Assembly (NCBI RefSeq): GCF_002252525.1
Contig: NZ_NNRM01000036.1
Location: 1 to 64,000, forward strand
DNA from: Brucella pseudogrignonensis
Lineage (GTDB): Bacteria > Pseudomonadota > Alphaproteobacteria > Rhizobiales > Rhizobiaceae
Length of the DNA stretch: 64,000 nt
Reading direction: 5' to 3'
Both the position numbers and the translations under genes were made by a program. The notes below the pieces were generated by a model. The model saw only the letters and a list, made by a program, of their open reading frames with translations. It made no database searches and was not told where the DNA came from. Below, one piece after another: positions 16,667 to 48,548 of the stretch; the first letter of the stretch is position 1; each line of letters starts with the position of its first letter.

Positions 16667-16667
16667 C

Positions 16668-33065: not shown

Positions 33066-33077
33066 TTCTTCTCCCAT

Positions 33078-33327
33078 GCGCGTTTAAGCGAAATCTTCCT
33101 TTGTTCTAGCTGGTCGAGCCCGCCTCTACGACTTGGCTTAAGAGCGTGTGCCTTACGCCTTTCAGATAAGGGCTTAACCCAAGGTCCAGATTTTCCCGCA
33201 ATCGCAAGTCTTTATCCTGCTGCGCCAGGATGGGAGCGCATCGAACGCGCCCCGAATGTCCGGGGGGAAAGAAAATCGTGCGCAATCCAACACCAACACT
33301 GTCCGGCACCCATGCAGGAGCAAGATC
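33078..33327. promoter_or_regulatory. divergent promoter region of the polymerisation block and flippase gene
   Basis: About 250 bp between oppositely transcribed wecA-like and wzx-like genes, so it should hold both promoters. No motif I can name; an open frame through it is not protein-like. Confidence 0.4.
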
Positions 33328-34827
33328 ATGAGCGGCGCACGCAGAGGTTTCCTCATGGCGGTGCTTGAGCAATATGCCGGTCTGATTTTCAACTTTGTGA
33401 CCGTCATCGCAGTCTCGCGCTTTCTCGGGCCGGCAGAGACCGGCGCCGGTGTGGTCGGCTTGAGCATTGCTGCGATCGTGTTTTCCCTGCGTGAATTTGC
33501 CAGCCCGGAATTTCTGATCCGTCTCGAGACAATAGAAGACCGCGATATTCGGACCTCGATGACGTTCCTGATGCTGGTGACCCTCCTTTTATCGAGCGGG
33601 TTGTACCTGGCGCGCGATTATTTCGCGCTTACCTATCACGATGCTTCCTTGCTGCTCTTTCTCGACATCACCATCTTAGCGGCAATTGTCGAAAGCCTGT
33701 CTTTGCCGGTCGTCGCCTTGTTGAGGCGTGAAATGGCTTTCGGAATGCTGGCACGTATCCGTACCGCCGGGTCCGGCTTTGGCGCCCTAATCACCATCGC
33801 CATGGCCTGGCTCGGATTTGGGCACATGTGCTTTGCCTTCGGATTGCTGGCCAGCGCGCTGACGACCACAGGTCTGGCATTGACAATCTATCCGCTCCGA
33901 CGCCTGCTCAAACCATCACTGCACAGCATAAATACCGCCATGCGCTTTGGGATCTATCTCGGCGGAAATGCCGGATTGAACAAGATTTGCGAGACGTTTC
34001 CTCAACTGATGCTCGGCCGCTTCATGCCGATCGCATCGGTCGGGATTTACAATCGCGCCAATACAGTGAGCGGTCTGCCGGATCGTATTTTCCTGTCGGC
34101 GGTCTTCACCGTCGCCTTCCCGATGCTCTCCGCACATGCACGCGCCGGTGGCGATATCAGCCGCGCCTATATTCGCGCGCTTTCCTATATTTCCGTGGTC
34201 TACTGGCCGGCGCAGATTCTCCTCGCTCTCTTGGCCTATCCTGCGGTTGAGATCATTCTCGGACCAGGCTGGTCAGAGGCTGCTCTGATCGTGGCTATCA
34301 CAAGTCTGGCAAGCCTCTTCTGGTTTCCAGTCATTCTCACCTATCCGCTTCTGATGGCGCTGGGTGCCAATCGGGAAGCCTTCATCTCCAACCTCATCGC
34401 TCGGTCCGTTGCCACCGCCATTCTTTGCCTGGCTGCATTCCATGGCTTGCTGGCCGTCGCACTCAGTCAGTTCATCAGTCTGCCATTCCAGATGATTATA
34501 GCCATTGTCTATGTGCGAAAGCATGTTGCCTTCTCCTACCGGGTGCTGGTAATCGCGCTCCTGCGCAGCGCATCTGTCACCCTGTTTGCCCTTGCAGGCC
34601 CCTTCGCAATGGTTGCGGCAAATGGGTTCGGTGTTGAGATGGCTTTCACAAAGGCGCTGCTCATCGGACTTCTCGCAGTCGCGGGATGGCTCGTGGCATT
34701 GCTGGTTACCCGCCATCCATTCAGCGATGAACTGCGGGCGGTGTTTCGCCCGGTTGTCATACATCTCAAAGCGCGATTTGGACGCGTGGCACCCGCATGG
34801 TCCAAGCTCTCAGAACCCGCAGAATGA
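33328..34827 (+). CDS. polysaccharide flippase, Wzx-like (MOP superfamily)
   Basis: A 499-residue membrane protein with about twelve to fourteen hydrophobic helices. The N-terminus (GFLMAVLEQYAGLIFNFVT, then SRFLGPAETGAGVVGLS) is typical of the Wzx/RfbX group. It would flip the undecaprenyl-linked repeat unit to the periplasm. The ATG at 33328 follows GCAGGAG; the frame extends to 33256 without likely protein sequence. It is followed by a GT2 gene starting 9 bp downstream. Confidence 0.88.
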   Translation: MSGARRGFLMAVLEQYAGLIFNFVTVIAVSRFLGPAETGAGVVGLSIAAIVFSLREFASPEFLIRLETIEDRDIRTSMTFLMLVTLLLSSGLYLARDYFALTYHDASLLLFLDITILAAIVESLSLPVVALLRREMAFGMLARIRTAGSGFGALITIAMAWLGFGHMCFAFGLLASALTTTGLALTIYPLRRLLKPSLHSINTAMRFGIYLGGNAGLNKICETFPQLMLGRFMPIASVGIYNRANTVSGLPDRIFLSAVFTVAFPMLSAHARAGGDISRAYIRALSYISVVYWPAQILLALLAYPAVEIILGPGWSEAALIVAITSLASLFWFPVILTYPLLMALGANREAFISNLIARSVATAILCLAAFHGLLAVALSQFISLPFQMIIAIVYVRKHVAFSYRVLVIALLRSASVTLFALAGPFAMVAANGFGVEMAFTKALLIGLLAVAGWLVALLVTRHPFSDELRAVFRPVVIHLKARFGRVAPAWSKLSEPAE

Positions 34828-34835
34828 GGCCGGAC

Positions 34836-35804
34836 ATGGCGAGAACATCAGATCACCTGCCAACCGTCGACATTGTGATACCCAACTATAATTATGGACA
34901 CTATCTGCTTGAATGCGCCAATAGCGTCCTGTCACAAACGGGCGTGGTGGTCAGACTGTTGATCATCGACAATGCCTCCACCGACAACAGCGCAGCCCTG
35001 GCCCGCACATTGGCTGCCAATGACCTGCGGGTTGAACTGCTGCTGAGATCCGAAAATCTCGGGCCACATGCCTCGTTCAACCAGGCGATCGATTGGGCCC
35101 GTTCGGAGTTTTTTCTCATTTTATGCGCTGATGACCTTTTGTCGTCGGGCGCCTTGGCGCGCAGTGCCCAATTGCTTCGACACTGTCCGGATGTCCATCT
35201 TGCATTCGGTGTCGCACAATCCATTGCAGCGCATGAGAGGCGACCGCAAATGCCTGCCTTTGTCCATCGAGGTGATTGGGACATCGTTGAAGGAAGACGA
35301 TTCATCGAATGCGCATGCCGATACGCTTTCAATCCGGTGGCCGGGCCCACCGCTCTGGTGCGCACCGACATACAAAAGCGGGTCGGCTATTATCGAGCAG
35401 AGCTTACCCATACCGATGACCTCGAAATGTGGCTGCGGTTCGCTTTATGGGGCAACGTTGCCTCAACGCGCAATGTGCAGGCCTATGCACGTGTCCATAA
35501 CGCCAATCAATCGGCAAAAGTCGCGGGTATCATGAACTGGAACAGCGAATTCGAAGCCGCATTTCGCTCGTTCTTTGAACAGGAAGGGCGCGAGATGGCC
35601 GGGGCATCGCGTCACTTCGAGGCTGCCCGCACCTGCCTCACAAAACGCGCCTATTGGTCCGCCTTCGCCAGTTTCATGCGTGGAGAAAAAGATGCAGCAA
35701 GATTGATGGCCTTTGCTCTGAAGCGACGCCCGTTGCTGGCACTGCTGCCGCCGGTTGACTATCTGCTGGAGCGGCGCCACCGATACCACTCAGACCGTGG
35801 CTAA
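34836..35804 (+). CDS. glycosyltransferase family 2
   Basis: A 322-residue GT-A glycosyltransferase: VDIVIPNYNYGHYLLEC, LLIIDNASTDNS and the DxD-like LCADDLLSSG. The C-terminal third (residues about 225-320) is helical and not conserved. GAGG ahead of the ATG at 34836 decides that start; ATG 34824 would overlap the flippase stop. It probably adds a side sugar of the repeat unit. Confidence 0.88.
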   Translation: MARTSDHLPTVDIVIPNYNYGHYLLECANSVLSQTGVVVRLLIIDNASTDNSAALARTLAANDLRVELLLRSENLGPHASFNQAIDWARSEFFLILCADDLLSSGALARSAQLLRHCPDVHLAFGVAQSIAAHERRPQMPAFVHRGDWDIVEGRRFIECACRYAFNPVAGPTALVRTDIQKRVGYYRAELTHTDDLEMWLRFALWGNVASTRNVQAYARVHNANQSAKVAGIMNWNSEFEAAFRSFFEQEGREMAGASRHFEAARTCLTKRAYWSAFASFMRGEKDAARLMAFALKRRPLLALLPPVDYLLERRHRYHSDRG

Positions 35805-35808
35805 GGTT

Positions 35809-36984
35809 TCATAGCATCAAGCTCCGTAAAACCTCTTCCTGTTCGCGCAGGCGACCACGATAGATGTTCACCCCACGCTCCACGATCGTCGCCAGTTCCG
35901 CCCGACGCGCAAATATCTGATCAATCTGCCCAAGCAGATGTTCGGGATTGAAGGTCTCAATGTGATGACAATAGGCACCCAATCCCGTGTCGTTGAGCAA
36001 AGCATCGTTTTTTCTCGCATAACCGATCGATATTGCGGGCCTTGTCATCGCCAGAGCACAGACGATGTTATGATAACGGCTCGCGACCACAATATCCGTC
36101 AGAGCTATCTGCTGCATGAGTTCCTGGAGCGATGCGGGCGGTTCGAAGGTCACATTGCCTTTATCGCGATGGCGAAGGCGGGATTGCAGATCTTTCACCG
36201 CCGCCAGATCGCCCTGATCACCGATCAGGAGACGCACTTGCCTTCCCTGATCAAGCAAACCATCCACCAGGATACCCATTTTGTTCAGATAGGTCTGATA
36301 GATCGCCGCACCGTCCTGCGCGTTCTTGCGCCAGCCCCGGTAATTCATCACGCCGAGCCCGATCCGTTGATCAGCGCTGTTTGTAAGCACATCATCGGCG
36401 ACGGGCAGCGCGAATGCGATATCTGCACTCACGCCATCGCGGCGCCCGCTGACACCCAGCGAGCGCATGAAATCATAGGACACCTGGTCCCGATAGGAAC
36501 GATGGGCGGCAAGCAGAGCGGCCTTGCGGATGAACACGCGACTGAGCGGATGCGTGACCGGACCTGCCCCAATGGAAACAAACGCAAAGCGCGCGCCTGC
36601 AAGCCGGGCGGCAATCGACCAACGCAAAATCGCAAATGGCCAGCCAAAGGGGTTCTCGTTGAAGTCGTCGAGGATGCCCGTCCCCGGAACGATAATCAGA
36701 TCGAGCCCCTGGGCCAGCGTCAAGGCACCAATGAAGCCAGTCAGCCTGCGGGGGACGTTGAAAAGCAACCTGTTGAGCAAGCGCAGATAGATATGCGCGG
36801 AAGCGGCTTGTCCCACAGGGACCGCCCGGATCTGAAATTTCGGGGTGATGATCTCGGGGTCGGAGCAAATGCAGACCAGTTGCGCATTGGGTGAAATCCG
36901 GTTCAAAACATGCAGCATCGCTTCCAGCGAGCCATCATTGCCGGTATTGCCAGAACCGAACTGACCAAAAAGACCTATTTTCAT
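35809..36984 (-). CDS. polysaccharide pyruvyl transferase family protein
   Basis: A 391-residue CsaB/AmsJ-like protein. Signatures are the N-terminal GLFGQFGSGNTGNDGSLEAM, DLIIVPGTGILDDF, the SIGAGP stretch, and the C-terminal RYHNIVCALAMTRPAISIGY. Family members transfer pyruvate from phosphoenolpyruvate to a sugar hydroxyl, giving an acidic ketal. ATG 36984 is preceded by GGAGA; the frame upstream of it is not part of the domain. It is convergent with the GT2 gene and divergent from the next GT4 gene. Confidence 0.85.
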   Translation of the reverse strand: MKIGLFGQFGSGNTGNDGSLEAMLHVLNRISPNAQLVCICSDPEIITPKFQIRAVPVGQAASAHIYLRLLNRLLFNVPRRLTGFIGALTLAQGLDLIIVPGTGILDDFNENPFGWPFAILRWSIAARLAGARFAFVSIGAGPVTHPLSRVFIRKAALLAAHRSYRDQVSYDFMRSLGVSGRRDGVSADIAFALPVADDVLTNSADQRIGLGVMNYRGWRKNAQDGAAIYQTYLNKMGILVDGLLDQGRQVRLLIGDQGDLAAVKDLQSRLRHRDKGNVTFEPPASLQELMQQIALTDIVVASRYHNIVCALAMTRPAISIGYARKNDALLNDTGLGAYCHHIETFNPEHLLGQIDQIFARRAELATIVERGVNIYRGRLREQEEVLRSLML

Positions 36985-37235
36985 AGACGTGTCTCCAACA
37001 CCGTCTGAGAAACTAAGCTGCGAATGGAAATTGTGAAAACTGGCAGAAGGGTGAAGACCCACCTCTTATGTAGGAGGGGCTATACCCCTGATAGCCAGAA
37101 TGCGTGCTGGCGCAATTTCGCTACACTGCATTGCGGTATATCAAACGCCCCCCGATATACTGGAGTAAGGCTTCGAGGGATCCGTCCCTCGAAGTCCTGG
37201 TTCCATCTCAACCACCGGGGCATCGGGTTGCGCTC
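36985..37235. promoter_or_regulatory. divergent promoter gap with two perfect hairpins
   Basis: A gap of about 250 bp between the pyruvyltransferase gene and a GT4 gene. At 37171-37194 there is a perfect inverted repeat (CTTCGAGGGA, 4-base loop, TCCCTCGAAG). At 37074-37088 a smaller one (AGGGG, CTATA, CCCCT) is present. There is no T-run behind either. They may be operators or 5' leader structures of the GT4 transcript. Confidence 0.5.
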
Positions 37236-38497: not shown

Positions 38498-39850
38498 ATG
38501 AACCTTTTCACCTCCCGGTTTCACAATTCTCAATTGCTGAGAAGCAAAGCGCATGCGCTCATTCCCGGTGGTTGTCACACCTATGCGAAAGGAGACGATC
38601 AATATCCCGTGCTTTCGCCCGGGTTTATACAACGCGGCTCGGGTTCGCATGTCTTTGATGTCGATGGCAACCAATATATCGAATATGGCATGGGCAATCG
38701 TGCGGTGGGTCTTGGCCACGCTTATCCTCCCGTGCTGCAGGCTGTTCGCGATGCGTTGCAGGATGGCTGCAACTTCACCCGCCCAAGCGCGATCGAGATC
38801 GAATGCGCCGAGAGTTTCCTGGAATTGATCGATGGCGCCGAAATGGTCAAATTCTGCAAGGATGGATCGGACGCGACCTCTGCAGCCGTTCGGTTGGCAC
38901 GCGCCTATACAGGACGTGACATGATCGCCTGTTGCTCCGACCATCCATTCTTCTCGACCGATGACTGGTTCATTGGCACAACCAGGATGAATGCTGGGAT
39001 CCCTGCTGCAGTCTCCGCCTTAACCACGGCATTCCGCTATAATGACCTTGCCTCGGTGGAAGCCCTTTTTGAAAATTATCCGGGAAGAATTGCCGCCCTC
39101 ATTCTCGAACCAGCGCGGATGGATGAGCCGCAGGCAGATTTTCTGCATCAGGCAAGACGGATCGCTCATGAAAACGGTGCCCTGTTTATTCTTGACGAGA
39201 TGATCACCGGGTTTCGCTTTCACATGCGCGGCGCACAGCGGCTTTATGATATCGAGCCAGATCTTTCCTGCTTTGGCAAGGCATTGGGCAATGGCTTTGC
39301 AATTTCCGCCCTGGCTGGCAAGGCAGACTATATGCAATTGGGTGGGCTTACACAGACCGACTATGCCCGCGTCTTCCTGCTTTCCACCACCCATGGGGCG
39401 GAAACCCATGCAATGGCAGCGGCGATCGCAACCATGAAGGTCTACCGCGATGAGCCGGTTATTGAACGCCTCTACCAGCAGGGCCAACAGCTCGCTCAAG
39501 GTGTCGAGAGCACGATTGCCAATCATGGTCTGGGACAGCATGTGCGTTTGATGGGCCGTCCATGCTGCCTTGCCTATGCAACATTGGATGGTGACGGAGA
39601 AGCATCACAGGCGTTCCGCAGCCTTTTCTTGCAGGAAACGATCCGACGCGGTATTCTTATGCCTTCTCTGGTCGTCAGCTATACCCATAGCGATACCGAT
39701 ATCGCCCGGACCGTTGAAGCCATCGACGGTGCGCTTGGCATCTATGCAAGAGCCCTCAATGACGGTGTCGAGACCTATCTCACCGGCCGCCCCTCGCAAC
39801 TGGTCTATCGTCGGTTCAACAGCGCGCCGGCCAATCCGCTCACCCGATGA
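38498..39850 (+). CDS. class III aminotransferase, glutamate-1-semialdehyde aminomutase-like
   Basis: A 450-residue PLP enzyme of fold type I. The PLP-binding lysine is Lys261 in SCFGKALGNGF, and the ILDEMITGFR signature precedes it. It resembles glutamate-1-semialdehyde aminomutase and the aminotransferases found in polysaccharide loci. Being in the island and not with haem genes, it more likely aminates (or moves an amino group on) a sugar or a small decoration. Its stop overlaps the next start (ATGA). The substrate is not deducible. Confidence 0.88.
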   Translation: MNLFTSRFHNSQLLRSKAHALIPGGCHTYAKGDDQYPVLSPGFIQRGSGSHVFDVDGNQYIEYGMGNRAVGLGHAYPPVLQAVRDALQDGCNFTRPSAIEIECAESFLELIDGAEMVKFCKDGSDATSAAVRLARAYTGRDMIACCSDHPFFSTDDWFIGTTRMNAGIPAAVSALTTAFRYNDLASVEALFENYPGRIAALILEPARMDEPQADFLHQARRIAHENGALFILDEMITGFRFHMRGAQRLYDIEPDLSCFGKALGNGFAISALAGKADYMQLGGLTQTDYARVFLLSTTHGAETHAMAAAIATMKVYRDEPVIERLYQQGQQLAQGVESTIANHGLGQHVRLMGRPCCLAYATLDGDGEASQAFRSLFLQETIRRGILMPSLVVSYTHSDTDIARTVEAIDGALGIYARALNDGVETYLTGRPSQLVYRRFNSAPANPLTR

Positions 39851-41163
39851 GGATCGCGCGTTGCGGCCTGATGATTATTTCATTGCTGGTTCTGACTGCA
39901 GCAAAGCTGCCGTCCATCTTTCCCGTTGCTGTAAGCGGTGATCAACGGCTGTTGGAAAATGCTGATGGCCGGCCGTTTCTGCTCTTGGGGGACGCCGCAT
40001 GGTCACTGATTGCGGAACTGGGTCGCCAAGACACAAAAACCTATCTCGATGACCGCGCCAAGCGTGGCTTCAATGCCATCCTGGTCAATCTTGTCGAACA
40101 CCAGTTTTCAAGCCACCCCCCGGCCAATGCCTTTGGCGACCAGCCTTTTCCGCAGCGGCCGTTTGCAGCACTGGGAAAGAACTATTTTGATCATGCGGCA
40201 TGGGTCATTGATCAGGCATCAAGACGAGGCATGCTCGTGTTTCTCGTCCCCGCCTATCTTGGCGTGAATGGCGGTGAACAAGGCTGGTATAGCGAGGCTG
40301 CGGCGGCAGGTCCCGCACAAATGAGAGCCTATGGCGAAGCGGTCGCACGGCGGTTCGCACGATACCCCAATATTGTCTGGGTGCTCGGCGGTGATTTTGA
40401 TGCGCCTGACAAGCCGCTTGTTTCGCAACTGGCCGAAGGGATTGCGGCCGCTTCACCCCGCGCGCTTCAGACCGTCCATGCGAGCCGCGATACGCCCGCT
40501 TTCGATCTGTGGGGCGGGGAGCGCTGGTTCTCGATGGATACGGTCTATACCTATGGCGACGTTCACAAGACGATATTACAGCAAAGCAGCCGCAGCAGGC
40601 TGCCGGTAATATTGCTGGAGGGCGCCTATGAATATGAGCGGGACACAACGGCACGGATGACCCGGCGCAATGCCTATGGCGCCATGTTGGGCGGCGCAGC
40701 CGGTCAGTTTTTTGGTAACAATCCCGTCTGGCATTTTTCCGGGCCGGGCGTGTTCGCGTCCGATCAGGACTGGCAAGAGGCACTCGACAGTCCTGGTGCA
40801 CAATCCATGGCGGTGTTGAAGACCATCTTCGAGAGAATTGACTGGTTTCGATTGCAGCCCGATCGTGACGGGTCGATCACCGATGTCGAGGGGAGCTACG
40901 CCGCCGCCTGGCCCGATCACCGGCTCATCGCGATTTACGGTGATGCGGGTCAGTTTCAGGTCAAGGCGGACGTTGTCAACGGATCAGCCTCCGCCTTATG
41001 GGTGGATCCAGCCTCCGGTCAAGCGATCACTGCGAACACCCCGCAATTGCGGCAAGGCTTGCAAATCTATCAGACCCCACCCGATCGCAACAATGTCCCC
41101 AACAGCGACTGGCTGCTGCTGATTGGTAGCGCGCCAGAGATCGGGCTCCTCCAAAAGCGGTAG
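39847..41163 (+). CDS. DUF4038 (apiosidase-like, GH140-type) exported protein
   Basis: A 438-residue protein with an N-terminal signal (LMIISLLVLTAAKLPSI) and a (beta/alpha)8-type DUF4038 domain: FLLLGDAAWSLIAEL, KRGFNAILVNLVEHQ, NIVWVLGGDFDAP and ILLEGAYEYERD. The C-terminal part (about 360-435) is a beta domain usually paired with DUF4038. The Asp in GGDFD and Glu in LLEGAYE are candidate catalytic acids. Known relatives hydrolyse apiosyl linkages, a branched sugar; here it may trim or degrade the exopolysaccharide. Translationally coupled to the aminotransferase gene. Confidence 0.82.
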   Translation: MRIARCGLMIISLLVLTAAKLPSIFPVAVSGDQRLLENADGRPFLLLGDAAWSLIAELGRQDTKTYLDDRAKRGFNAILVNLVEHQFSSHPPANAFGDQPFPQRPFAALGKNYFDHAAWVIDQASRRGMLVFLVPAYLGVNGGEQGWYSEAAAAGPAQMRAYGEAVARRFARYPNIVWVLGGDFDAPDKPLVSQLAEGIAAASPRALQTVHASRDTPAFDLWGGERWFSMDTVYTYGDVHKTILQQSSRSRLPVILLEGAYEYERDTTARMTRRNAYGAMLGGAAGQFFGNNPVWHFSGPGVFASDQDWQEALDSPGAQSMAVLKTIFERIDWFRLQPDRDGSITDVEGSYAAAWPDHRLIAIYGDAGQFQVKADVVNGSASALWVDPASGQAITANTPQLRQGLQIYQTPPDRNNVPNSDWLLLIGSAPEIGLLQKR

Positions 41164-41283
41164 AGCTTACGACCTTTCGTGTCTTTTTTAACCGCTTGTC
41201 CGAAGCCAGCAATCCTTCGGTCAACTCGTTCTCGCTGCGCATGCGCGCTAGCGTGCTGTCATCATCAAGTTGAGGAGTTTGCC

Positions 41284-42345
41284 ATGAAGGTACTTGTTAC
41301 GGGGCATCAAGGCTACATCGGGTCCGTCATGGTCCCGATGCTGATCAGCGCAGGCCATGAGGTTTCTGGATATGATTCCGGGCTGTATCGACACTGCCTG
41401 TTTGAAGAAGGAGGCTCGGTGATCGATGTGCCGACAATCCGCAAGGATGTGCGCGATGTCACCGCTCATGATCTTCAAGGCTTTGATGCTGTCATTCATC
41501 TTGCCGCTTTGTCGAATGATCCGCTGGGCAATCTCAATGAGGATCTCACCTATGCAATCAATCATCACGCAAGCGTTGCCATGGCGAAGGCGGCCAAATC
41601 TGCTGGCGTCAGACGATTTCTCTTTGCTTCCTCCTGCAGCAATTACGGCATCAGTGATGCGGCGTTAATCGACGAGACGGGAGAGCTTAATCCGGTCACC
41701 GCTTATGGCCGTTCCAAGGTCAGGGCCGAGCGCGATATCAGTGCGCTCGCAGACGAAAGCTTCTGTCCTGTTTACATGAGACCGGCAACCGCCTATGGCG
41801 TGTCGCCCTTTTTGCGCTTCGATATCGTGTTAAACAATCTGGTCGCCTGGGCGGTCACGAAAGGATTGATCTATCTTAAGTCCGATGGCACGCCATGGCG
41901 GCCGATCGTCCATATTCGAGACATTGCACGGGCCTTCATAGCGGCTATGGAAGCCGAGCGGGACACCGTGTTTAACCAGGCATTCAATCTCGGTTCGACC
42001 GACCATAATTATCGTATTCGTGACATTGCAGCCATCGTCGCAGACACTGTTCCGGACTGCCGCATCGATTATGCCGAGGATGCCGGCCCCGATACGCGTT
42101 CGTATCGCGTCAGTTTCGAAAAACTTGCCCGCCTGCTGCCACAGGCACGACCGCAATGGGATGCAGCGGCGGGCGCACAGGAACTGCTTGCCGCCTATTG
42201 TCGTTCATCGCTGACGCTTGAAGAATTTGAAGGCCCGCGTTTCCAGCGTATTGCCCATATCAAAAAGCTGCTTGCGCACGGCGAGCTCGATGGCAATTTG
42301 CGCCGCACGGTTGAAGATGTCGCTCTGTTCAGGGCAAGCGCGTGA
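41284..42345 (+). CDS. NAD-dependent epimerase/dehydratase (extended SDR)
   Basis: A 353-residue extended SDR enzyme. [12 protein letters not shown] is the NAD site, SSCSNYG holds the catalytic Ser, and TAYGRSK gives the YxxxK pair. It acts on a nucleotide sugar (epimerase, dehydratase or reductase; not distinguishable by eye). The ATG at 41284 follows GAGGAG. The longer frame upstream is not domain-like. Its stop shares a base with the next start (TGATG). Confidence 0.9.
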
Positions 42346-43670
42346 TGGACAGTGGATATGGTCGAAGGGTTGGGTCCGACCGGCCGCAAGACAGCGCAAT
42401 CGGTCATGAGATTCATGCGCTCGCCGCACGGCTCTTTCCGATCTGCCGCAGTCTGAGCGGAGAGGGCGTGCGGCAGACACTGGCGATAATCGGCGAGCAA
42501 TTGCCGCTCGATATTCACAGAATGAAGAGTGGAGACCAGCTTTTTGATTGGCAGGTACCCAGGGAATGGTTGATCCGTGACGCGTTCATCGCCGATGATA
42601 CGGGCCGGCGGATTGTCGATTTCAACCACAACAATCTCCATGTCGTTAACTTCAGTGTACCGATACGGACCCGAATGAGTCTGACGGAGTTGCGCGACCA
42701 TATCCATACATTGCCGGAGCAACCCGACTGCATCCCTTACCGAACCTGCTATCACAATGCTGACTGGGGCTTCTGTATGGCCCATAACGCATTGCTTCAA
42801 ATGCAGGATGACCACTATCAGGTGGTGATCGACGCCGAACATCGCGAGGGCTGGCTCGATTATGGAGAGTTCATCCACAAAGGCTCCAGCAAGGATGTGT
42901 TCGTGATTTCGACTCATCTCTGCCATCCGTCGCTCGCCAATGACAATTGCTCGGGCATGGCGTTGCTCAGCTTCTTGGGCGCGGCATTAAAGCGGCGTCA
43001 AACCCGCTTGACCTATCGTCTGTTGTTTGGTCCTGCAACCTTCGGAGCGCTTGCCTGGCTCAGACAGAACGAAGCGCAGCTGCCGCTGGTTAAACATGGG
43101 CTCGTGCTATCCTGTGTGGGGGATGGTGGCGGACCAAACTATAAGCGAAGTCGGCGTGGCAATGCCGAAATTGATCAGATCATGGCCTATCTGTTGCCGC
43201 GCGCGGATCTTCCCGACGCCAAGCTCCATGACTTCTGGCCCTACGGTTACGACGAACGGCAATTTTGCTCACCCGGCTTCAATCTGCCAGTCGGGTCATT
43301 CCAGCGCAGCCTCTACGGCAGTTTTCCCGAGTATCACACGTCCAGCGACAATCTCGATTTCATAAAAGCGGACTATCTGCAACAATCCTATCATCTCGTC
43401 ATGCAGGCCATTGATCTGGCTGAACGCAACTGGACACCCGTCAATACCGCGCCCAAAGGTGAACCGCAACTCGGACGCAGAGGGCTATTTGATCATAGGG
43501 ATGACATGCAAGCGCCAGTGAACTATGCGATGGCTCTTCTGTGGGTGCTAAACCTGTCAGACGGCACCCAAACAGTTCTCGATATGGCCGCGCGCTCTCA
43601 AATCGATTTTGATACACTCCATTATGCCGCACAAAGACTTTGCGCGGTCGGCCTCCTCGATCCCGCCTGA
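42345..43670 (+). CDS. DUF4910 aminopeptidase-like protein
   Basis: A 441-residue protein with the DUF4910/DUF2172 fold, related to M28-type zinc aminopeptidases. The putative zinc site is visible: STHLCHPSLANDNCSGM (His and Asp ligands, about residues 190-205), with the second part in EYHTSSDNLDF (about 329-339). The N-terminal region SLSGEGVRQTL is typical for the family. There is no signal peptide. These proteins recur in polysaccharide and nucleotide-sugar loci, where their substrate is unknown. GTG 42342 is an alternative start. Coupled to the epimerase gene. Confidence 0.82.
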   Translation: MDSGYGRRVGSDRPQDSAIGHEIHALAARLFPICRSLSGEGVRQTLAIIGEQLPLDIHRMKSGDQLFDWQVPREWLIRDAFIADDTGRRIVDFNHNNLHVVNFSVPIRTRMSLTELRDHIHTLPEQPDCIPYRTCYHNADWGFCMAHNALLQMQDDHYQVVIDAEHREGWLDYGEFIHKGSSKDVFVISTHLCHPSLANDNCSGMALLSFLGAALKRRQTRLTYRLLFGPATFGALAWLRQNEAQLPLVKHGLVLSCVGDGGGPNYKRSRRGNAEIDQIMAYLLPRADLPDAKLHDFWPYGYDERQFCSPGFNLPVGSFQRSLYGSFPEYHTSSDNLDFIKADYLQQSYHLVMQAIDLAERNWTPVNTAPKGEPQLGRRGLFDHRDDMQAPVNYAMALLWVLNLSDGTQTVLDMAARSQIDFDTLHYAAQRLCAVGLLDPA

Positions 43671-43671
43671 C

Positions 43672-44196
43672 TCAAAGATGCGGCCAGCTCCTGTCCTTCT
43701 CTGACATGATGCTCGGCTTGTCCGGCCAGGGAATCCCCAAAGCAGGATCATCGTAGCGAATACCCGTTGCAAAATCGGGTGCATAGGGCCGGGATATCAT
43801 ATAGCGCAGCAACACATCATCGGTGAGCGTTTGAAAGCCGTGCGCACAGCCCTCGGGAATGTAGAGCTCCACACCGTTGCCCGCTGACAACTCAAGCCCC
43901 GTCCAATGGCGGTAGGTGGGTGATTCAGGTCTCAAATCAACCAGCACGTCCCAGATGATACCCTGCAGACAGGTGACAAGCTTGGTTTCTGAATGCGGTT
44001 CATTCTGATAGTGCAATCCACGCAATGTGCCTTTTTCTCGCGAGAACGAGAGACTATGCTGCGGGAAACTGGTTTGCATGCCGCGTTCCTTGAATTCCGC
44101 TTCGCAATAGACACGTGCAAACCAGCCGCGTTCATCCTCGATCCGTTCCGGTTCGATGGACCAGGCGCCCTGAATGTTCAGCGGTAGAAAACGCAT
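43672..44196 (-). CDS. rfbC: dTDP-4-dehydrorhamnose 3,5-epimerase-like protein
   Basis: A 174-residue cupin of the RmlC/RfbC family. His62 in LRGLHYQ and Tyr132 in LLRYMIS occupy the positions of the RmlC catalytic His and Tyr, and YIPEGCAHGFQ is the conserved core. It epimerises a 4-keto-6-deoxy sugar at C3, C5 or both. The partners rmlA, rmlB and rmlD are not in the window, so its substrate may instead be the sugar built by the neighbouring cytidylyltransferase and methyltransferase. The start at 44196 follows GAGGC; the longer frame to 44271 is extra. Confidence 0.87.
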   Translation of the reverse strand: MRFLPLNIQGAWSIEPERIEDERGWFARVYCEAEFKERGMQTSFPQHSLSFSREKGTLRGLHYQNEPHSETKLVTCLQGIIWDVLVDLRPESPTYRHWTGLELSAGNGVELYIPEGCAHGFQTLTDDVLLRYMISRPYAPDFATGIRYDDPALGIPWPDKPSIMSEKDRSWPHL

Positions 44197-44521
44197 CTTT
44201 TTTGCCTCACAAGCCTCACGCGGCCATTCTGACAGCTTTCCCACAGCGCGATAGGGTTGTTTTGGGCTCACAGGCCTGCACCATAGCCGATCATCCCCCT
44301 ATCCAGAAGAGGTAGCGCAACCTGCGCCTTTTGATCGATGCGAAGGTTCAAGGGAGCGTCTCCCATAGCCCGACAGCGGATAGGACCGGCCGATGGGATA
44401 GAGGATGCGCTCCTCTTTGCAGTCTCGGAAATATTGGGCCCAATCAGTAGCTTTGCTTATCCGAACAAGATCGGCACTAGGACCCAGAATTCAACGGGAC
44501 CGGGCAGGGCGAGGTATATTT
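44197..44521. promoter_or_regulatory. divergent promoter gap of the sugar-modification module
   Basis: About 325 bp separate the rfbC-like gene (minus) from the C-methyltransferase gene (plus), so both promoters should lie here. An open frame spans part of it without protein-like sequence. No specific motif can be named. Confidence 0.4.
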
Positions 44522-45823
44522 ATGACCATCCAGACGCCGGGCATATCGCGGAGTACAAGCATGGCCCAACAACAAGTCGGTTGCCGCTTGTGCGGAACGC
44601 TTCTCAGGCACAGTTTTGTTGACCTGGGAATGTCCCCCCCATGCGAGAGCTTCATCACGGCCGAACAATGTGATCAAATGGAGCCCTATTATCCGCTCTA
44701 TGCACTGGTCTGTGACCATTGTTATCTGGTGCAGCTGAAGGAATATTTCAGCCCTGCCGATATTTTTACCGAATATGCCTATTTTTCATCCTTTGCCACA
44801 AGCTGGGTCACTCATGCCAGAACCTATTGTGAGGAAATCACCGAAAAGCTCGATCTCAATGGGGATAGTTTCGTCGTCGAGATTGCCAGCAATGATGGCT
44901 ATCTTCTGCAACACTTCATCCCGAAGGCCATCCCGATCCTCGGCATTGAACCTGCGGCAAATGTCGCGGAAGCGGCACGGGCAAAAGGAGTTCCCACATT
45001 GGTCGAATTCTTTGGCACGCGCCTTGCCGCGCAGATGAGTGCCGATGGAAAAAAAGCTGACCTGATCATCGGCAACAATGTTCTCGCCCAGGTTCCCGAC
45101 CTCAATGACTTTGTGCGCGGGATGCAATTGCTGCTCAAGCCGGAAGGGGTCATCACCCTTGAGTTTCCGCATCTCGCCAATCTGATTGAACACAATCAGT
45201 TCGATACGATCTATCACGAACACTTCTCCTATTTCTCCTTGCTGACCATCCGCTATATGGCACACCGACACCACCTCAAGGTGATCGATGTGGAGGAGCT
45301 GCCTACCCATGGTGGTTCCCTTCGGGTCTATCTCGCCCACAATTCCAGCAAGCGAAAGGCCGGCCCCCGCGTTGCGGCTTTGCTCAAAAAAGAACAGGCC
45401 TTTGGTCTCAACGACATTGCGACCTATGAACAATTTTCGGAGAAAACTCGTCGGACCAAACGCGACCTGCTGTCATTTCTGATCGCAGCAAAAAATGCGG
45501 GCAAGCGCATCTGCGGCTATGGAGCGCCGGGCAAGGGTAATACCCTGCTCAATTATTGCGGTATCGGGACCGACTTTCTCGATTTCACGGTCGATCGCAA
45601 TCCTTACAAGCACGGACGCTTTACGCCCGGAATGCATATTCCGATCTTTGACCCCTCGGTCATCGACAGTTTCAAACCCGATTATATTCTGATCCTGCCT
45701 TGGAACTTCAAGGAGGAAATCATCCGGCAGATGCAGCATGTAGTGGAATGGGGTGGCAAGTTCATCATACCGATTCCGCACGTGACCTTGATTGATCCTG
45801 CCTTGCTCACAGAGGAGCGCTAA
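44522..45823 (+). CDS. sugar C-methyltransferase, TylC3-like
   Basis: A 433-residue SAM-dependent methyltransferase with three parts. The N-terminal zinc-binding domain has CRLC (21-24) and CDHC (about 66-69). The central SAM domain has VVEIASNDGYLLQHF and YHEHFSYFSL. The C-terminal domain has ICGYGAPGKGNTLLNYCGI. This is the layout of the NDP-sugar C-3 methyltransferases such as TylC3, which methylate a 4-keto-deoxy sugar to make a branched-chain sugar. Start ATG 44522 follows GAGG; ATG 44561 is an alternative. It is followed 3 bp later by the cytidylyltransferase gene. Confidence 0.87.
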   Translation: MTIQTPGISRSTSMAQQQVGCRLCGTLLRHSFVDLGMSPPCESFITAEQCDQMEPYYPLYALVCDHCYLVQLKEYFSPADIFTEYAYFSSFATSWVTHARTYCEEITEKLDLNGDSFVVEIASNDGYLLQHFIPKAIPILGIEPAANVAEAARAKGVPTLVEFFGTRLAAQMSADGKKADLIIGNNVLAQVPDLNDFVRGMQLLLKPEGVITLEFPHLANLIEHNQFDTIYHEHFSYFSLLTIRYMAHRHHLKVIDVEELPTHGGSLRVYLAHNSSKRKAGPRVAALLKKEQAFGLNDIATYEQFSEKTRRTKRDLLSFLIAAKNAGKRICGYGAPGKGNTLLNYCGIGTDFLDFTVDRNPYKHGRFTPGMHIPIFDPSVIDSFKPDYILILPWNFKEEIIRQMQHVVEWGGKFIIPIPHVTLIDPALLTEER

Positions 45824-45826
45824 GTC

Positions 45827-46636
45827 ATGAAAGTGGTTCTTTTCTGCGGTGGTCTTGGTACCAGAATACGCGAATATTCCGAAAATGTGCCCAAGCCGAT
45901 GATCCCACTGGGACATCAACCCATCCTCCATCACGTCATGGAATATTATTCTGACTATGGACATAATGATTTCGTCCTCTGTCTGGGCTACAAGGCCAAT
46001 GTTGTCAAAGATTTCTTTCTCAACATCCGCCCCCAGACCTTCGCCGATTGCGTCGTCTCCGACGGCGGTCGCAATGTGCGCTTGCTCGAAGATGTCGACC
46101 GCGACTGGAGCGTCACGCTGCTCGATACGGGGATATGGCGCAATATTGGTGAACGATTGTGGAGTGCACGTGCCCATGTCCAGGGCGAGGATATGTTTCT
46201 TGCCAATTATAGTGATGGCTTGAGCGATGTCGATCTCGACGACATGAAACAGCGGTTCGAAAAAAGTGGGAAGCTTGCTTGCTTCCTGGCGGTTCGCCCG
46301 CCGCTCACCTATCACCTTGCCGATATTGCTGAAGATGGCGCGGTCCATGCGTTCCGGACCTCCAATACCTCGGATATCTGGATCAATGGCGGCTATTTCC
46401 TGTTTCGCAAGGAAATATTCGACTATATGCGCGAGGGCGAGGAACTGGTACTCGAACCGTTCACACGCCTGATCGCCGACAATCAGCTGATGGCCTACAA
46501 GTATGAGGGCTTCTGGCGGTCGATGGACACATTGCGTGACTGGCAGACACTGGAGGACATGGTCGAAAAGGGCGATATGCCCTGGAAAAAGCATCGGACA
46601 CAGATGCAGGCCGCAAATATCGCGATTGCGTTATGA
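45827..46636 (+). CDS. sugar-1-phosphate cytidylyltransferase-like, RfbF family
   Basis: A 269-residue nucleotidyltransferase. VVLFCGGLGTRIREYSENVPKPMIPLG is split here into the nucleotide-binding GGLGTRI near residue 8 and the sugar-phosphate site KPMIPLG near residue 23; ANYSDGLSDVD holds the metal-binding Asp. The pattern best matches glucose-1-phosphate cytidylyltransferase. It would make an NDP-sugar (CDP expected) for the module. No CDP-glucose 4,6-dehydratase is recognised nearby; the SDR at 41284 may fill that role. Overlaps the PIG-L gene by 4 bp. Confidence 0.85.
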   Translation: MKVVLFCGGLGTRIREYSENVPKPMIPLGHQPILHHVMEYYSDYGHNDFVLCLGYKANVVKDFFLNIRPQTFADCVVSDGGRNVRLLEDVDRDWSVTLLDTGIWRNIGERLWSARAHVQGEDMFLANYSDGLSDVDLDDMKQRFEKSGKLACFLAVRPPLTYHLADIAEDGAVHAFRTSNTSDIWINGGYFLFRKEIFDYMREGEELVLEPFTRLIADNQLMAYKYEGFWRSMDTLRDWQTLEDMVEKGDMPWKKHRTQMQAANIAIAL

Positions 46637-47289
46637 TCGATCTCTTGCGTCTTTCGGAGCGAAAAATACCGCTGAAGCTTCTCTGTTTGGGCGCACATTC
46701 AGACGATATTGAAATCGGCTGTGGCGGCACTGTCCTGAGCCTGATTGCAACCGGAGTGCCGCTGGATATTGAATGGTGTGTTTTGTCGGGTAATGAAGTT
46801 AGACAGGCAGAAGCACTGGCTGCTGCGCGTGGCTTTACCAGTGGAGCACATCGCTGTTTTATTCAGCAGGCTCATTTTGAGGACAGCTATTTCCCAGCTC
46901 ACGCCCGGCAGATCAAAGCCTGGCTGATGGCCCTGCGCGACCGCTTCACACCGGACCTCATCTTCACGCATGGCGGCGGGGATGCCCATCAGGATCATCG
47001 GACCGTTCAGGAACTGACCTGGAACGTGTTTCGCGATCAGCTTGTGCTGGAATATGAAATTCCCAAGTGGGATGGAGACCTCGGACAACCCAACAGCTAT
47101 GTCGCGCTGAGCGCAGATATCCTCGATAAGAAAATCAAACTGCTCATGCAGCATTTCAGCTCTCAGCGTTCCAAGGACTGGTTTGACCCTGAGACATTTC
47201 GCGCGATTGCCCGTCTTCGCGGCATGGAATGCCGCGCCCCCGATCGCTTCGCGGAGGGCTTTCATACGCGCAAACTGCGACTTCTCTAA
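46633..47289 (+). CDS. PIG-L family deacetylase
   Basis: A 218-residue zinc-dependent deacetylase of the PIG-L/LmbE family. CLGAHSDDIEIGCGGTV carries the AHxDDE-like zinc motif (AHSDD), and the second His comes from GGDAHQDHRTV. Members remove acetyl groups from N-acetylated sugars. In this module it would act after N-acetylation of an amino sugar, consistent with the aminotransferase at 38498. It ends the module and is convergent with the oxidase gene. Confidence 0.9.
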   Translation: MIDLLRLSERKIPLKLLCLGAHSDDIEIGCGGTVLSLIATGVPLDIEWCVLSGNEVRQAEALAAARGFTSGAHRCFIQQAHFEDSYFPAHARQIKAWLMALRDRFTPDLIFTHGGGDAHQDHRTVQELTWNVFRDQLVLEYEIPKWDGDLGQPNSYVALSADILDKKIKLLMQHFSSQRSKDWFDPETFRAIARLRGMECRAPDRFAEGFHTRKLRLL

Positions 47290-47336: not shown

Positions 47337-48548
47337 TCAGTGATGTATCGGGTCGGACTTTGTGCGCCTGAAGATCAGTTCACCAATCGGGATGGCGGAG
47401 GTGGCTGCGGGTGAGGGGGCATTGCAGACATGCAAGCTTCGCGGCGTTTGCAAAAGCTTGAAATCATGGATGAGGCTACCGGTGCTGGAAACAGCCTGCG
47501 CCCGGATGCCGGCTCGATAGGGAAGCAGATCATCCAGCTCGAGCGATGGACAGTATTTTCTGCATTTTTCAAGATAGCTTGATTTGAACAGACTGTCCCT
47601 GATTTCCTCTGCACCAGAAGCAAGATGCTGCCGCATCACCTTCCAGAAGCCCGAAAATCCAATATAGGTGGCAATATCCCGCATGCTGGTGGAAAATTTG
47701 CCATAGCCTTCACGGGAAAGTCCCAAGACCGCATTCGGTCCCACCGTCAAACTGCCATCAATCATCGGCGTCAGATGGATTCCGAGAAATGGCATTGCGG
47801 GATCAGGCACCGGATAGATCATGCGCTCGACAAGCCTGTTCAGTTGCGGACGCAACGCATAATATTCGCCGCGAAACGGTATGATCTGAAAATCCACACT
47901 CAAGCCCGACTGCCGTGCCAGCCGGTCGGCCTGCAGTCCGGCGCAGGCGATCGCATAGCGGCTTTCCAGAATGCCCTGATCGGTATGAATGCGAACACAA
48001 TCAGCGCGCTCCTCAAGCGATGTGACACGCATGCCCAGCTTGATCGTGCCACCGCCTTGCTCGATCAAAGCGCCCATCGTTGTCGAGATCGCCTGATAAT
48101 CGACAATACCACTTTGCTCAACAAACAGTGCCTTGAGGCCGCTGATCGAGGGTTCCATTTCCTTCAGCTGATCCCGCTCAACCATTCGACATTGAATGGC
48201 ATTCGCTGCCGCGTTTTCCTGTAGCGCTTGCAGGCGTTGCAATTCAAGCGGACTGGTCGCCACCACCAGTTTGCCGGGCGTGCGGTAAACAATTCCGTAC
48301 TGATCACAAAACGCCTTGGTGGCTCGCTCCCCGGCGCGGCAGAGTTCCGCCTTCAGGCTTCCAGGCTGGTAATAAATGCCCGCGTGAATGACGCCGCTAT
48401 TATGACCGGTCTGATGTCCGGCAAGACGCTCTTCCTTCTCGAGCAGCAGAACACGGGCGTCCGGCTCACCGCGGGATATCGCCCAGGCTGTTACCAGCCC
48501 GACGATCCCGCCTCCCACAATGCAGTAGTCGAACATGATCGCGCTCAA
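47337..48548 (-). CDS. lhgO: L-2-hydroxyglutarate oxidase-like FAD enzyme
   Basis: A 403-residue FAD-dependent oxidoreductase of the DAO family. The N-terminus has the dinucleotide fold (VGGGIVGLVTAWA) followed by LLLEKEERLAGHQTGHNSGVIHAGIYY, a signature of LhgO/L2HGDH. It would oxidise L-2-hydroxyglutarate to 2-oxoglutarate at the membrane. The stop is close to the convergent PIG-L gene. It marks the right border of the polysaccharide island. Confidence 0.9.
   Translation of the reverse strand: MSAIMFDYCIVGGGIVGLVTAWAISRGEPDARVLLLEKEERLAGHQTGHNSGVIHAGIYYQPGSLKAELCRAGERATKAFCDQYGIVYRTPGKLVVATSPLELQRLQALQENAAANAIQCRMVERDQLKEMEPSISGLKALFVEQSGIVDYQAISTTMGALIEQGGGTIKLGMRVTSLEERADCVRIHTDQGILESRYAIACAGLQADRLARQSGLSVDFQIIPFRGEYYALRPQLNRLVERMIYPVPDPAMPFLGIHLTPMIDGSLTVGPNAVLGLSREGYGKFSTSMRDIATYIGFSGFWKVMRQHLASGAEEIRDSLFKSSYLEKCRKYCPSLELDDLLPYRAGIRAQAVSSTGSLIHDFKLLQTPRSLHVCNAPSPAATSAIPIGELIFRRTKSDPIHH

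What the first reader, a model, noticed from the sequence alone, without database searches (positions are those of the whole stretch)
38498..47289. Compact module with DUF4910, C-methyltransferase, cytidylyltransferase, RmlC, SDR, PIG-L and class III aminotransferase: a candidate new branched-sugar pathway
The gene set implies NDP activation (RfbF-like), C4/C6 changes (SDR), epimerisation (RmlC-like), C-methylation (TylC3-like), amination (class III) and deacetylation (PIG-L). The usual CDP-glucose 4,6-dehydratase is absent. DUF4910 is aminopeptidase-like, cytosolic and of unknown function. It may remove an aminoacyl or N-acyl group from the sugar or its nucleotide. The set suggests a branched amino sugar not described for this group.
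Basis: partly seen in the sequence, partly recalled or inferred. Interest (0 to 1): 0.75.

Follow-up and report, generated by a model that had tools for sequence, protein, structure and literature searches.

The report
Branched-sugar cassette without 4,6-dehydratase
A set of six to seven neighbouring genes, found in bacteria of several phyla, looks like a recipe for a surface-polymer sugar carrying an extra methyl branch, and it seems to start the chemistry with a different enzyme from the textbook one; the product has not been identified.

Summary
The genes are real and form a conserved cassette. In the best 80 of 91 loci found with the nucleotidyltransferase alone, PIG-L is present in 80, RmlC 74, C-methyltransferase (CMT) 69, DUF4910 68, SDR 67, aminotransferase 57; Streptomyces has the same set. 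The 'missing 4,6-dehydratase' is not a gap: the SDR's best solved relative is 6vo6 (recalled as Cj1427, a sugar-nucleotide C4-dehydrogenase; 32% identical), and in 95 CMT loci SDR and CDP-glucose 4,6-dehydratase (RfbG) never occur together (80 SDR only, 7 RfbG only, 8 neither). The RfbF is a distinct subfamily without the Glu-Lys pair of 1tzf: all 93 such loci have PIG-L, none of 10 loci with the pair does. DUF4910 splits into two clades; the CMT-linked one has its own metal-site motif. Best reading: a CDP-activated 3-C-methyl hexose or hexosamine keeping its C6 oxygen, for an exported polysaccharide. Substrate, product and the roles of PIG-L, DUF4910 and aminotransferase are inferred. DUF4910's link to sugar genes was published in 2014. 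The neighbouring L-2-hydroxyglutarate oxidase proved incidental.

The parts
38498..39850 (+). AT3: class III PLP aminotransferase of the GSAM-like family NF004856/PRK06209
   Evidence: nearest solved 3k28 GSAM, 188 bits; present in 57 of 80 loci
39847..41163 (+). Apiosidase-like (DUF4038) glycoside hydrolase; accessory, in 48 of 80 loci; possible polymer-trimming enzyme (inference)
   Evidence: PF13204 242 bits; 8t9w apiosidase 106 bits
41284..42345 (+). SDR, best solved relative 6vo6/6vo8 (recalled as Cj1427); proposed NDP-hexose 4-dehydrogenase (ORF opens at 41179; start 41284 by relatives)
   Evidence: 6vo6 113 bits, next PDB chain 66 bits; 94 of 294 aligned residues identical; invariant S116-S119, Y141, K145 in 27 rows; AF2 model pLDDT 91; not found with RfbG
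42342..43670 (+). DUF4910 + DUF2172 insert + HTH_47; clade I, CMT-linked type with H192, H195, S197, D201-N202, P231, H332
43672..44196 (-). RmlC-like 3,5-epimerase (ORF opens at 44271; start 44196 by relatives)
   Evidence: TIGR01221 above cut-off; PDB 1ep0 153 bits; start read
44522..45823 (+). CMT: TylC3/TcaB9-type sugar C-methyltransferase (ORF opens at 44405)
   Evidence: 4rv9 D-mycarose 3-C-methyltransferase 294 bits; H232-E233-H234 conserved in at least 97% of 75 rows
45827..46636 (+). RfbF': cytidylyltransferase-like enzyme without the EK pair and with S for G130
   Evidence: 1tzf 162 bits
46633..47289 (+). PIG-L family deacetylase, overlapping RfbF' by four bases
   Evidence: PF02585; H22, D24, D25, H119, H122 conserved in at least 97% of 83 rows
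35809..37062 (-). Polysaccharide pyruvyl transferase; travels with the cassette in 45 of 80 loci
   Evidence: PF04230 116 bits
37104..38471 (+). Glycosyltransferase family 4
   Evidence: Glycos_transf_1 102 bits
29124..35804 (.). Assembly side of the same polysaccharide locus: WecA-like transferase 31911-33077 (-), Wzx flippase 33256-34827 (+), GT2 genes 31033-31914 (-) and 34797-35804 (+), and a protein without Pfam match, 29124-30518 (-), that may be the polymerase
   Evidence: polymerase role is inference

Best explanation
The cassette makes a nucleotide-activated, C-methyl-branched sugar for an exported, probably pyruvylated polysaccharide. RfbF' loads a sugar-1-phosphate that is not plain glucose-1-P onto a nucleotide (CTP by family; an N-acetylhexosamine is the simplest guess because PIG-L always comes with it). 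PIG-L removes the acetyl group at or near this step. The SDR oxidises C4 without removing the C6 oxygen, as the C4-dehydrogenase Cj1427 does, and so replaces RfbG. RmlC epimerises C3 and/or C5 of the 4-keto sugar; CMT methylates C3. DUF4910, a zinc protein of a CMT-linked subclass, acts on or right after the methylated 4-keto intermediate; AT3, where present, may aminate it. Shown by computation: gene set, conservation, SDR/RfbG exclusivity in the loci examined, RfbF'/PIG-L and CMT/DUF4910 pairing. Inferred: every substrate, the order of steps, the product.
For: Cassette: all six core genes in 60 of 80 loci, 50 of these with AT3; after collapsing RfbF at 85% identity to 35 groups, PIG-L 35, RmlC 29, DUF4910 26, CMT 25, SDR 24, AT3 17, all six 18. 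Other phyla: L123, L124, L126, L128; Streptomyces L130 has all seven. SDR: best solved relative 6vo6 by 47 bits, 32% identical over 294 residues. 6vo6 is titled only 'putative sugar-nucleotide epimerase/dehydratase'; that it is Cj1427 is recalled. Cj1427's C4 oxidation with alpha-ketoglutarate as electron sink is stated in PMC10680097 (passages). Among 95 CMT loci (CMT over 200 bits, SDR over 150, RfbG over 120): SDR only 80, RfbG only 7, both 0, neither 8; on 47 loci after partial collapsing 35/7/0/5, Fisher p=1.3e-5. In 33 RfbF'-bearing genomes RfbG occurs in 3, RmlB in 24; 7 have neither, 5 of these with CMT in the cassette. Pairing: RfbF loci without the EK pair have PIG-L in 93 of 93 (92, plus L163), EK loci in 0 of 10. 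DUF4910 clade I: CMT in the stretch in 37 of 39, clade II 0 of 19. In 398 phylum genomes the 6 with the H192-NDN type all carry CMT within 5 kb.
Against: No enzyme here has been assayed and no polymer analysed. EK-type RfbF also occurs with SDR, CMT and DUF4910 (L137, L138, L140), so the front end varies. DUF4910 is missing beside CMT in Tsukamurella (L163, otherwise complete) and Leisingera (L164, SDR and three methyltransferases), within 8 kb, and CMT is missing beside clade I DUF4910 in L110 and L126, so neither always needs the other. L105 has RfbF', PIG-L and DUF4910 but RfbG (418 bits) and no SDR in the stretch. AT3 is absent from 15 of 39 clade I loci. Most RfbF' genomes, the own one included, do have RmlB. 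The L-2-hydroxyglutarate oxidase beside the cassette, which would fit a Cj1427-type enzyme, is not enriched: 9 of 33 RfbF' genomes against 4 of 14 same-family genomes without DUF4910. Sampling was not random: of the five RfbG loci fetched late through CMT, two (H53, H57) were chosen knowing or expecting rfbG; and one of the seven RfbG loci, L035, has only a half-length RfbG match (125 bits).
Confidence: 0.55

Rival explanations
1. The C-methyltransferase is fed by dTDP-4-keto-6-deoxyglucose from RmlB elsewhere in the genome; the SDR is then a 4-ketoreductase or 4-epimerase acting last, and the product is an ordinary 6-deoxy-3-C-methyl sugar.
For: RmlB is in the own genome and in 24 of 33 RfbF' genomes; the nearest solved relatives of RmlC and CMT belong to dTDP-sugar pathways (pathway knowledge recalled).
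Against: 7 of 33 RfbF' genomes have neither RmlB nor RfbG at the cut-offs used, 5 of them with CMT in the cassette, and G287 has only a stop-bearing RmlB match. It leaves RfbF' without a job. SDR and RfbG exclude each other in 95 CMT loci, as two ways to make a 4-keto sugar would. Three of the five are draft MAGs and GDP- or UDP-sugar 4,6-dehydratases were not sought.
Confidence: 0.17
2. DUF4910 is an amidase or transacylase on the sugar (first reader; also one suggestion in Das 2014) and the product is an N-acylated branched amino sugar.
For: Metallopeptidase-like fold with one Zn (PMC4000134); PIG-L and AT3 in the same cassette.
Against: The two M28 catalytic acids are Ser and Pro (S197, P231) in the window as in 3k9t. 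Within clade I, DUF4910 follows CMT (37 of 39) more closely than PIG-L (34) or AT3 (24); it follows RfbF of either type (38) as closely as CMT.
Confidence: 0.17
3. The cassette makes the 3-C-methyl-D-rhamnose reported in the O-antigen of Phyllobacterium trifolii.
For: A P. trifolii strain carries the cassette (L092) and this sugar is in the title of Zamlynska 2015 (seen only as a reference entry in PMC5644692).
Against: G437 (the P. trifolii genome) has a second, distant CMT (30% identical to the window's) whose locus holds mannose-1-phosphate guanylyltransferase (TIGR01479, 568 bits) and a GDP-mannose 4,6-dehydratase gene (Pfam 386 bits), a GDP route towards D-rhamnose; five other Phyllobacterium genomes have only the cassette CMT at E<=1e-20. 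That the sequenced CECT 7015 is PETP02 is recalled.
Confidence: 0.05
4. The neighbours travel together only as a general polysaccharide island, without forming one pathway.
For: All parts are families that occur in polysaccharide loci; AT3, glycoside hydrolase and pyruvyl transferase vary.
Against: CMT, RfbF' and PIG-L lie within a few bases of each other, RfbF'/PIG-L pair in 93 of 93 loci, and the same set occurs in Actinomycetota and other phyla in different gene orders.
Confidence: 0.06

Closest known systems
S. meliloti ddhA-ddhB-SMb21418 (RfbF-RfbG-3-C-methyltransferase), table entry in PMC4053727 (one passage)
   Same: CDP route to a C-methylated 4-keto sugar by annotation; CMT 49% identical in strain ml28 pSymB; a RmlC gene nearby
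   Different: EK-type RfbF, RfbG present, no SDR, PIG-L or DUF4910 hit within 8 kb of CMT
Campylobacter jejuni Cj1427-Cj1430-Cj1428 GDP-heptose pathway (PMC10680097, passages)
   Same: 4-keto sugar made by a C4-dehydrogenase without dehydration, then a C3/C5 epimerase
   Different: GDP-heptose substrate, dedicated C4-reductase, no C-methylation in the passages seen; SDR only 32% identical
CA_C2195 / 3k9t (Das 2014)
   Same: Same three-domain protein and Zn ligands, 428 bits; sugar gene neighbourhood
   Different: Y instead of H192; its Table 2 neighbours include a NeuB-type synthase and no CMT of this kind
TylC3 / TcaB9 sugar 3-C-methyltransferases (4rv9, 3ndi)
   Same: Family and HEH motif
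   Different: Known members work on dTDP-4-keto deoxysugars of antibiotics (recalled)
RfbF glucose-1-phosphate cytidylyltransferase (1tzf)
   Same: Full-length similarity, 162 bits
   Different: E178-K179 and G130 replaced in all RfbF' rows; below the TIGR02623 cut-off

Membership tests
Cj1427-type sugar-nucleotide C4-dehydrogenase | Sequence closer to 6vo6/6vo8 than to any other solved SDR | tested here: met
   113 bits against 66 for the next, 32% identity; that 6vo6 is Cj1427 is recalled
Cj1427-type sugar-nucleotide C4-dehydrogenase | SDR catalytic Ser/Thr-Tyr-Lys without the Asp-Glu pair of 4,6-dehydratases | tested here: met
   SSCSNYG and Y141/K145, invariant in 27 rows but for N120; role of the Asp-Glu pair is recalled
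Cj1427-type sugar-nucleotide C4-dehydrogenase | alpha-ketoglutarate-dependent ping-pong oxidation at C4 | not testable with these tools
   needs an assay
Glucose-1-phosphate cytidylyltransferase (TIGR02623) | Score above curated cut-off 300 | tested here: not met
   208 bits
Glucose-1-phosphate cytidylyltransferase (TIGR02623) | Glu178-Lys179 pair and G130 | tested here: not met
DUF4910 (PF16254) | Score above gathering cut-off with DUF2172 and HTH_47 | tested here: met
   338.7, 130.2 and 81.5 bits
M28 metallopeptidase | Catalytic Asp and Glu | tested here: not met
   S197 and P231 in their places
TylC3-type sugar C-methyltransferase | Three-domain Methyltransf_13/23/14 layout and HEH motif | tested here: met
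TylC3-type sugar C-methyltransferase | Methylation at C3 of an NDP-4-keto sugar | not testable with these tools
   needs an assay
CDP-glucose 4,6-dehydratase pathway | RfbG in the genome | tested here: not met
   no match at E<=1e-30 in the own genome
PIG-L deacetylase | AHxDD and distal His metal ligands | tested here: met
   H22, D24, D25, H119, H122; that these are the ligands is recalled
dTDP-4-dehydrorhamnose 3,5-epimerase | TIGR01221 above cut-off | tested here: met
   171 against 156 bits; substrate untested

The most novel reading that the evidence does not exclude
A second general route to C-methyl-branched sugars exists in which a C4-dehydrogenase replaces the 4,6-dehydratase, so that the branched hexose keeps its C6 hydroxyl. 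The CMT-linked DUF4910 is a new kind of mononuclear zinc enzyme that works on the 3-C-methyl-3-hydroxy-4-keto sugar, for instance by an alpha-ketol (methyl or ring-carbon) rearrangement, and gives a branched skeleton not yet described in bacterial polysaccharides.
Probability: 0.15. Interest if true: 0.82.

Novelty: new variant of a known kind. Interest (0 to 1): 0.58.

Why it matters
If right, known branched-sugar logic (4,6-dehydratase, then C-methylation) has a sister route with an alpha-ketoglutarate-recycled 4-dehydrogenase, present in legume symbionts (NGR234 among them), Streptomyces and other phyla. It would give DUF4910, an orphan family with a crystal structure described in 2014, a testable place in a pathway, and would show that 'glucose-1-phosphate cytidylyltransferase' and 'glutamate-1-semialdehyde aminomutase' are misleading database names for two of these proteins.

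Tried and rejected
1. LhgO (47337-48548, minus strand; 294 bits to 8w75; that 8w75 is the fly L-2-hydroxyglutarate dehydrogenase is recalled) as part of the pathway, disposing of L-2-hydroxyglutarate. It is the only strong match in the own genome and lies next to the cassette in a few Brucella-group loci, but only 5 of 80 loci have it at over 100 bits (6 with any hit) and genome-level presence is 9 of 33 against 4 of 14. Rejected as incidental.

2. O-antigen as destination. The O-polysaccharide of O. quorumnocens T1Kr02 is D-Fuc only (PMC10888714, passages), while strain A44 of that species carries the whole cassette. Different strains, and the T1Kr02 genome is stated there to be undeciphered, so this only makes the O-antigen less likely.

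3. 3-C-methyl-D-rhamnose as the product: see rivals.

4. ORF calling by longest frame gave spurious genes in high-GC loci and was replaced by a codon-usage score; counts rest on tblastn and on ORF clusters, which differ by one or two loci per gene for that reason.

5. Literature searches without a paper on this gene set: (DUF4910, DUF2172: of the papers listed only the 2014 one has the family in its abstract; the others I looked at only in listing or one passage). That the pathway is not in print is claimed only for these searches of an open-licence library.

6. Structure comparison of the SDR model could not be run, nor a DUF4910 model.

Rows dropped or not searched: RfbF rows of 220 aa or less, one DUF4910 row of 300 aa or less, L077 not held, L131 and L147 not searched, where only replicons were searched (0 of 10 with RfbG at E<=1e-60). 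PIG-L absence for L137 and L138 first rested on stretches that end 1.2 and 0.1 kb after RfbF; about 11 kb more were then read in each, without a PIG-L hit.
Full report
WHAT IS THERE. The cassette proper is AT3, SDR, DUF4910, RmlC (minus strand), CMT, RfbF' and PIG-L. DUF4910 overlaps the end of the SDR by four bases and PIG-L overlaps RfbF' by four; three bases separate CMT and RfbF'. To the left lie a family-4 glycosyltransferase, a polysaccharide pyruvyl transferase, a Wzx flippase and a WecA-like transferase; a polysaccharide export protein (16575-17972, 70 bits) and a chain-length/Wzc-like protein (14468-16666, Pfam matches just below their cut-offs) follow further left. So the sugar is most likely made for an exported polysaccharide. 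The nearest relatives by RfbF' (95%) are Brucella species, several formerly called Ochrobactrum.

HOW CONSERVED. One scan of 84,980 species genomes with RfbF' alone confirmed 91 relatives, of which the best 80 were kept as loci. Counting tblastn hits above 100 bits: PIG-L 80, RmlC 74, CMT 69, DUF4910 68, SDR 67, AT3 57, apiosidase-like 48, pyruvyl transferase 45; all six core genes in 60, and AT3 too in 50 of those. After collapsing the RfbF' loci (two included) to 35 groups at 85% identity: PIG-L 35, RmlC 29, DUF4910 26, CMT 25, SDR 24, AT3 17, all six 18. Hits include Planctomycetia, Ignavibacteriae and Aliifodinibius MAGs, and Streptomyces, Nonomuraea and NGR234 replicons. The gene order differs between phyla, so the set is kept by function, not by recent copying alone.

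THE MISSING DEHYDRATASE. The own genome has no RfbG match at E<=1e-30 but has RmlB. The SDR's best solved relative is 6vo6/6vo8 at 113 bits; the next chain has 66; identity is 94 of 294 residues. I recall this entry as Cj1427. PMC10680097 (passages) describes Cj1427 as a C4-dehydrogenase with tightly bound NADH that is re-oxidised by alpha-ketoglutarate, followed by a C3/C5 epimerase: the same two first steps proposed here. A test follows: if the SDR does RfbG's job, the two should not be needed together. In 95 CMT loci (CMT over 200 bits, SDR over 150, RfbG over 120), 80 have SDR only, 7 RfbG only, none both, 8 neither. Three of the 8 (L106, L108, L121) have a DUF4910 in the genome 3-4 kb beyond the stretch by coordinates; only for L106 was that stretch read, and the SDR is there too (L158). 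On 47 loci, with the scan loci collapsed and the plasmid loci not, the numbers are 35, 7, 0 and 5 (p=1.3e-5). L105 is instructive: no SDR in the stretch, and a full RfbG (418 bits) next to PIG-L. The sampling was not random: SDR loci came mostly through RfbF', five RfbG loci through CMT, two of these chosen knowing or expecting rfbG; L035 counts as RfbG by a half-length match. At genome level, 7 of 33 RfbF' genomes have neither RmlB (E<=1e-90) nor RfbG (E<=1e-60); five of them have CMT in the cassette (L071, L075, L080, L109, L125) and a sixth (G420) has one at another locus. Three of the five are draft MAGs, and other kinds of 4,6-dehydratase were not sought.

AN UNUSUAL RfbF. 93 of 98 aligned rows, the window included, lack the Glu178-Lys179 pair of 1tzf and have S or A for its Gly130; the other five (1tzf, L035, L137, L138, L140) keep all three. 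Glu/Lys at this place contact the sugar phosphate in this fold (recalled). The loss goes with PIG-L: 92 of 92 loci without the pair have PIG-L, 0 of 4 with the pair; seven later loci add 1 of 1 (L163) and 0 of 6 (one of the six, L166, keeps the pair but has S at 130). For L137 and L138 about 11 kb beyond RfbF were read additionally, without PIG-L. So PIG-L belongs to the front of the pathway, and the sugar-1-phosphate is probably not glucose-1-P. An N-acetylhexosamine-1-P is my guess.

DUF4910. Das et al. 2014 (PMC4000134, parts 1-4 of 5 read) solved CA_C2195, found one Zn and replaced catalytic acids, and proposed a role in modified-carbohydrate synthesis from gene neighbourhoods. New here: a tree of 60 proteins splits into two halves (support 100/97, midpoint root). 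Clade I (41 rows) holds all 35 cassette rows, five rows with CMT but no RfbF' (L032, L035, L137, L138, L140) and CA_C2195. In an alignment of 39 clade I rows (window included, CA_C2195 apart) H192, D201 and N202 are invariant; CA_C2195 has Y, D, N; in all 19 clade II rows 201-202 read N-E and 192 is Y, N or D. H195, P231 and H332 are invariant in all. The Asp of NDN is a Zn ligand in CA_C2195, so the two halves differ at the metal site itself. CMT is in the stretch in 37 of 39 clade I loci (not L110, L126) and 0 of 19 clade II loci. In the 398-genome phylum sample 30 genomes have DUF4910 and 85 have a CMT domain at E<=1e-40. The 6 genomes with the H192-NDN type all have CMT within 5 kb; three more NDN genomes with Tyr at that place (G145, G169, G125) have none nearby, and G297, with a divergent NDG motif, has one 17 kb away. 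The H192 criterion was seen in the data first, so the Fisher p=1.7e-6 is descriptive. Of 86 CMT loci, 83 have DUF4910 in the stretch, and the other three (Neoroseomonas) have it just outside, as said. Of eight searched genomes whose RfbF' locus shows no CMT, six (G414, G418, G425, G434, G435, G436) lack DUF4910 altogether; G412 has it in the locus (L110) and G420 at another locus, beside a CMT. Some of these loci are short contigs. Against a strict rule: Tsukamurella L163 and Leisingera L164 have CMT and SDR without DUF4910 within 8 kb, and RfbG-type loci (L160-L162, L165, L166) do without it. So DUF4910 is tied to this version of C-methyl-sugar synthesis, not to C-methylation as such.

WHAT IS NOT KNOWN. 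Substrate, nucleotide, methyl position, whether the sugar carries nitrogen, and what DUF4910 does. CMT-less variants carry a homoserine-dehydrogenase-like protein instead (L112, L117, L119; L119's weak match to NF004976), so a common 4-keto intermediate may feed more than one product.

CONTEXT IN PRINT. S. meliloti carries RfbF-RfbG-3-C-methyltransferase (table in PMC4053727, one passage; region of strain ml28), the classical counterpart. P. trifolii makes 3-C-methyl-D-rhamnose in its O-antigen (a title in a reference list), but its genome has a second CMT in a GDP-mannose-type locus. I recall CDP-vinelose of Azotobacter as a CDP-activated 3-C-methyl sugar; the library had no paper with that word.

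VERDICT. A real, widely conserved cassette, a new variant of a known kind (NDP-branched-sugar synthesis).

Noticed in passing
window 47337-48548 (-): L-2-hydroxyglutarate oxidase (LhgO)-like gene, the only strong match in the genome, ends 47 bases from the PIG-L gene; no general link to the cassette found.
   Followed up: yes
window 39847-41163 (+): Apiosidase-like (DUF4038) glycoside hydrolase inside the interval; travels with AT3 and the pyruvyl transferase in many alphaproteobacterial loci (48 of 80); its substrate could be the branched polymer.
   Followed up: partly
L112:8446-9789, L119:13200-14567, L117:7701-9056, L137:651-1934: A homoserine-dehydrogenase-like protein of about 430-455 aa near RfbF and RmlC, mostly where CMT/DUF4910 are absent: perhaps a sister pathway from the same front end.
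   Followed up: partly
L112:11469-12710, L115:13839-14939, L118:8716-9816, L131:13263-14216: A recurrent gene of unknown family (about 320-410 aa, alike by eye in its first residues) near cassettes in Ancylobacter, Bradyrhizobium and Nonomuraea.
   Followed up: no
L133, L135, L143 (clade II DUF4910 loci): Clade II DUF4910 (NNE metal motif) sits near nonulosonic-acid genes (NeuB-type, pse genes) instead of CMT; may be a different reaction.
   Followed up: partly
L051 and L079 (one Brucella pituitosa contig): Two cassette-like copies on one contig, the second with several genes matching only in part.
   Followed up: no
L035:7591-8322: Open frame whose first part matches RfbG and whose second part matches glycosyltransferases, beside an EK-type RfbF, CMT and DUF4910.
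   Followed up: no
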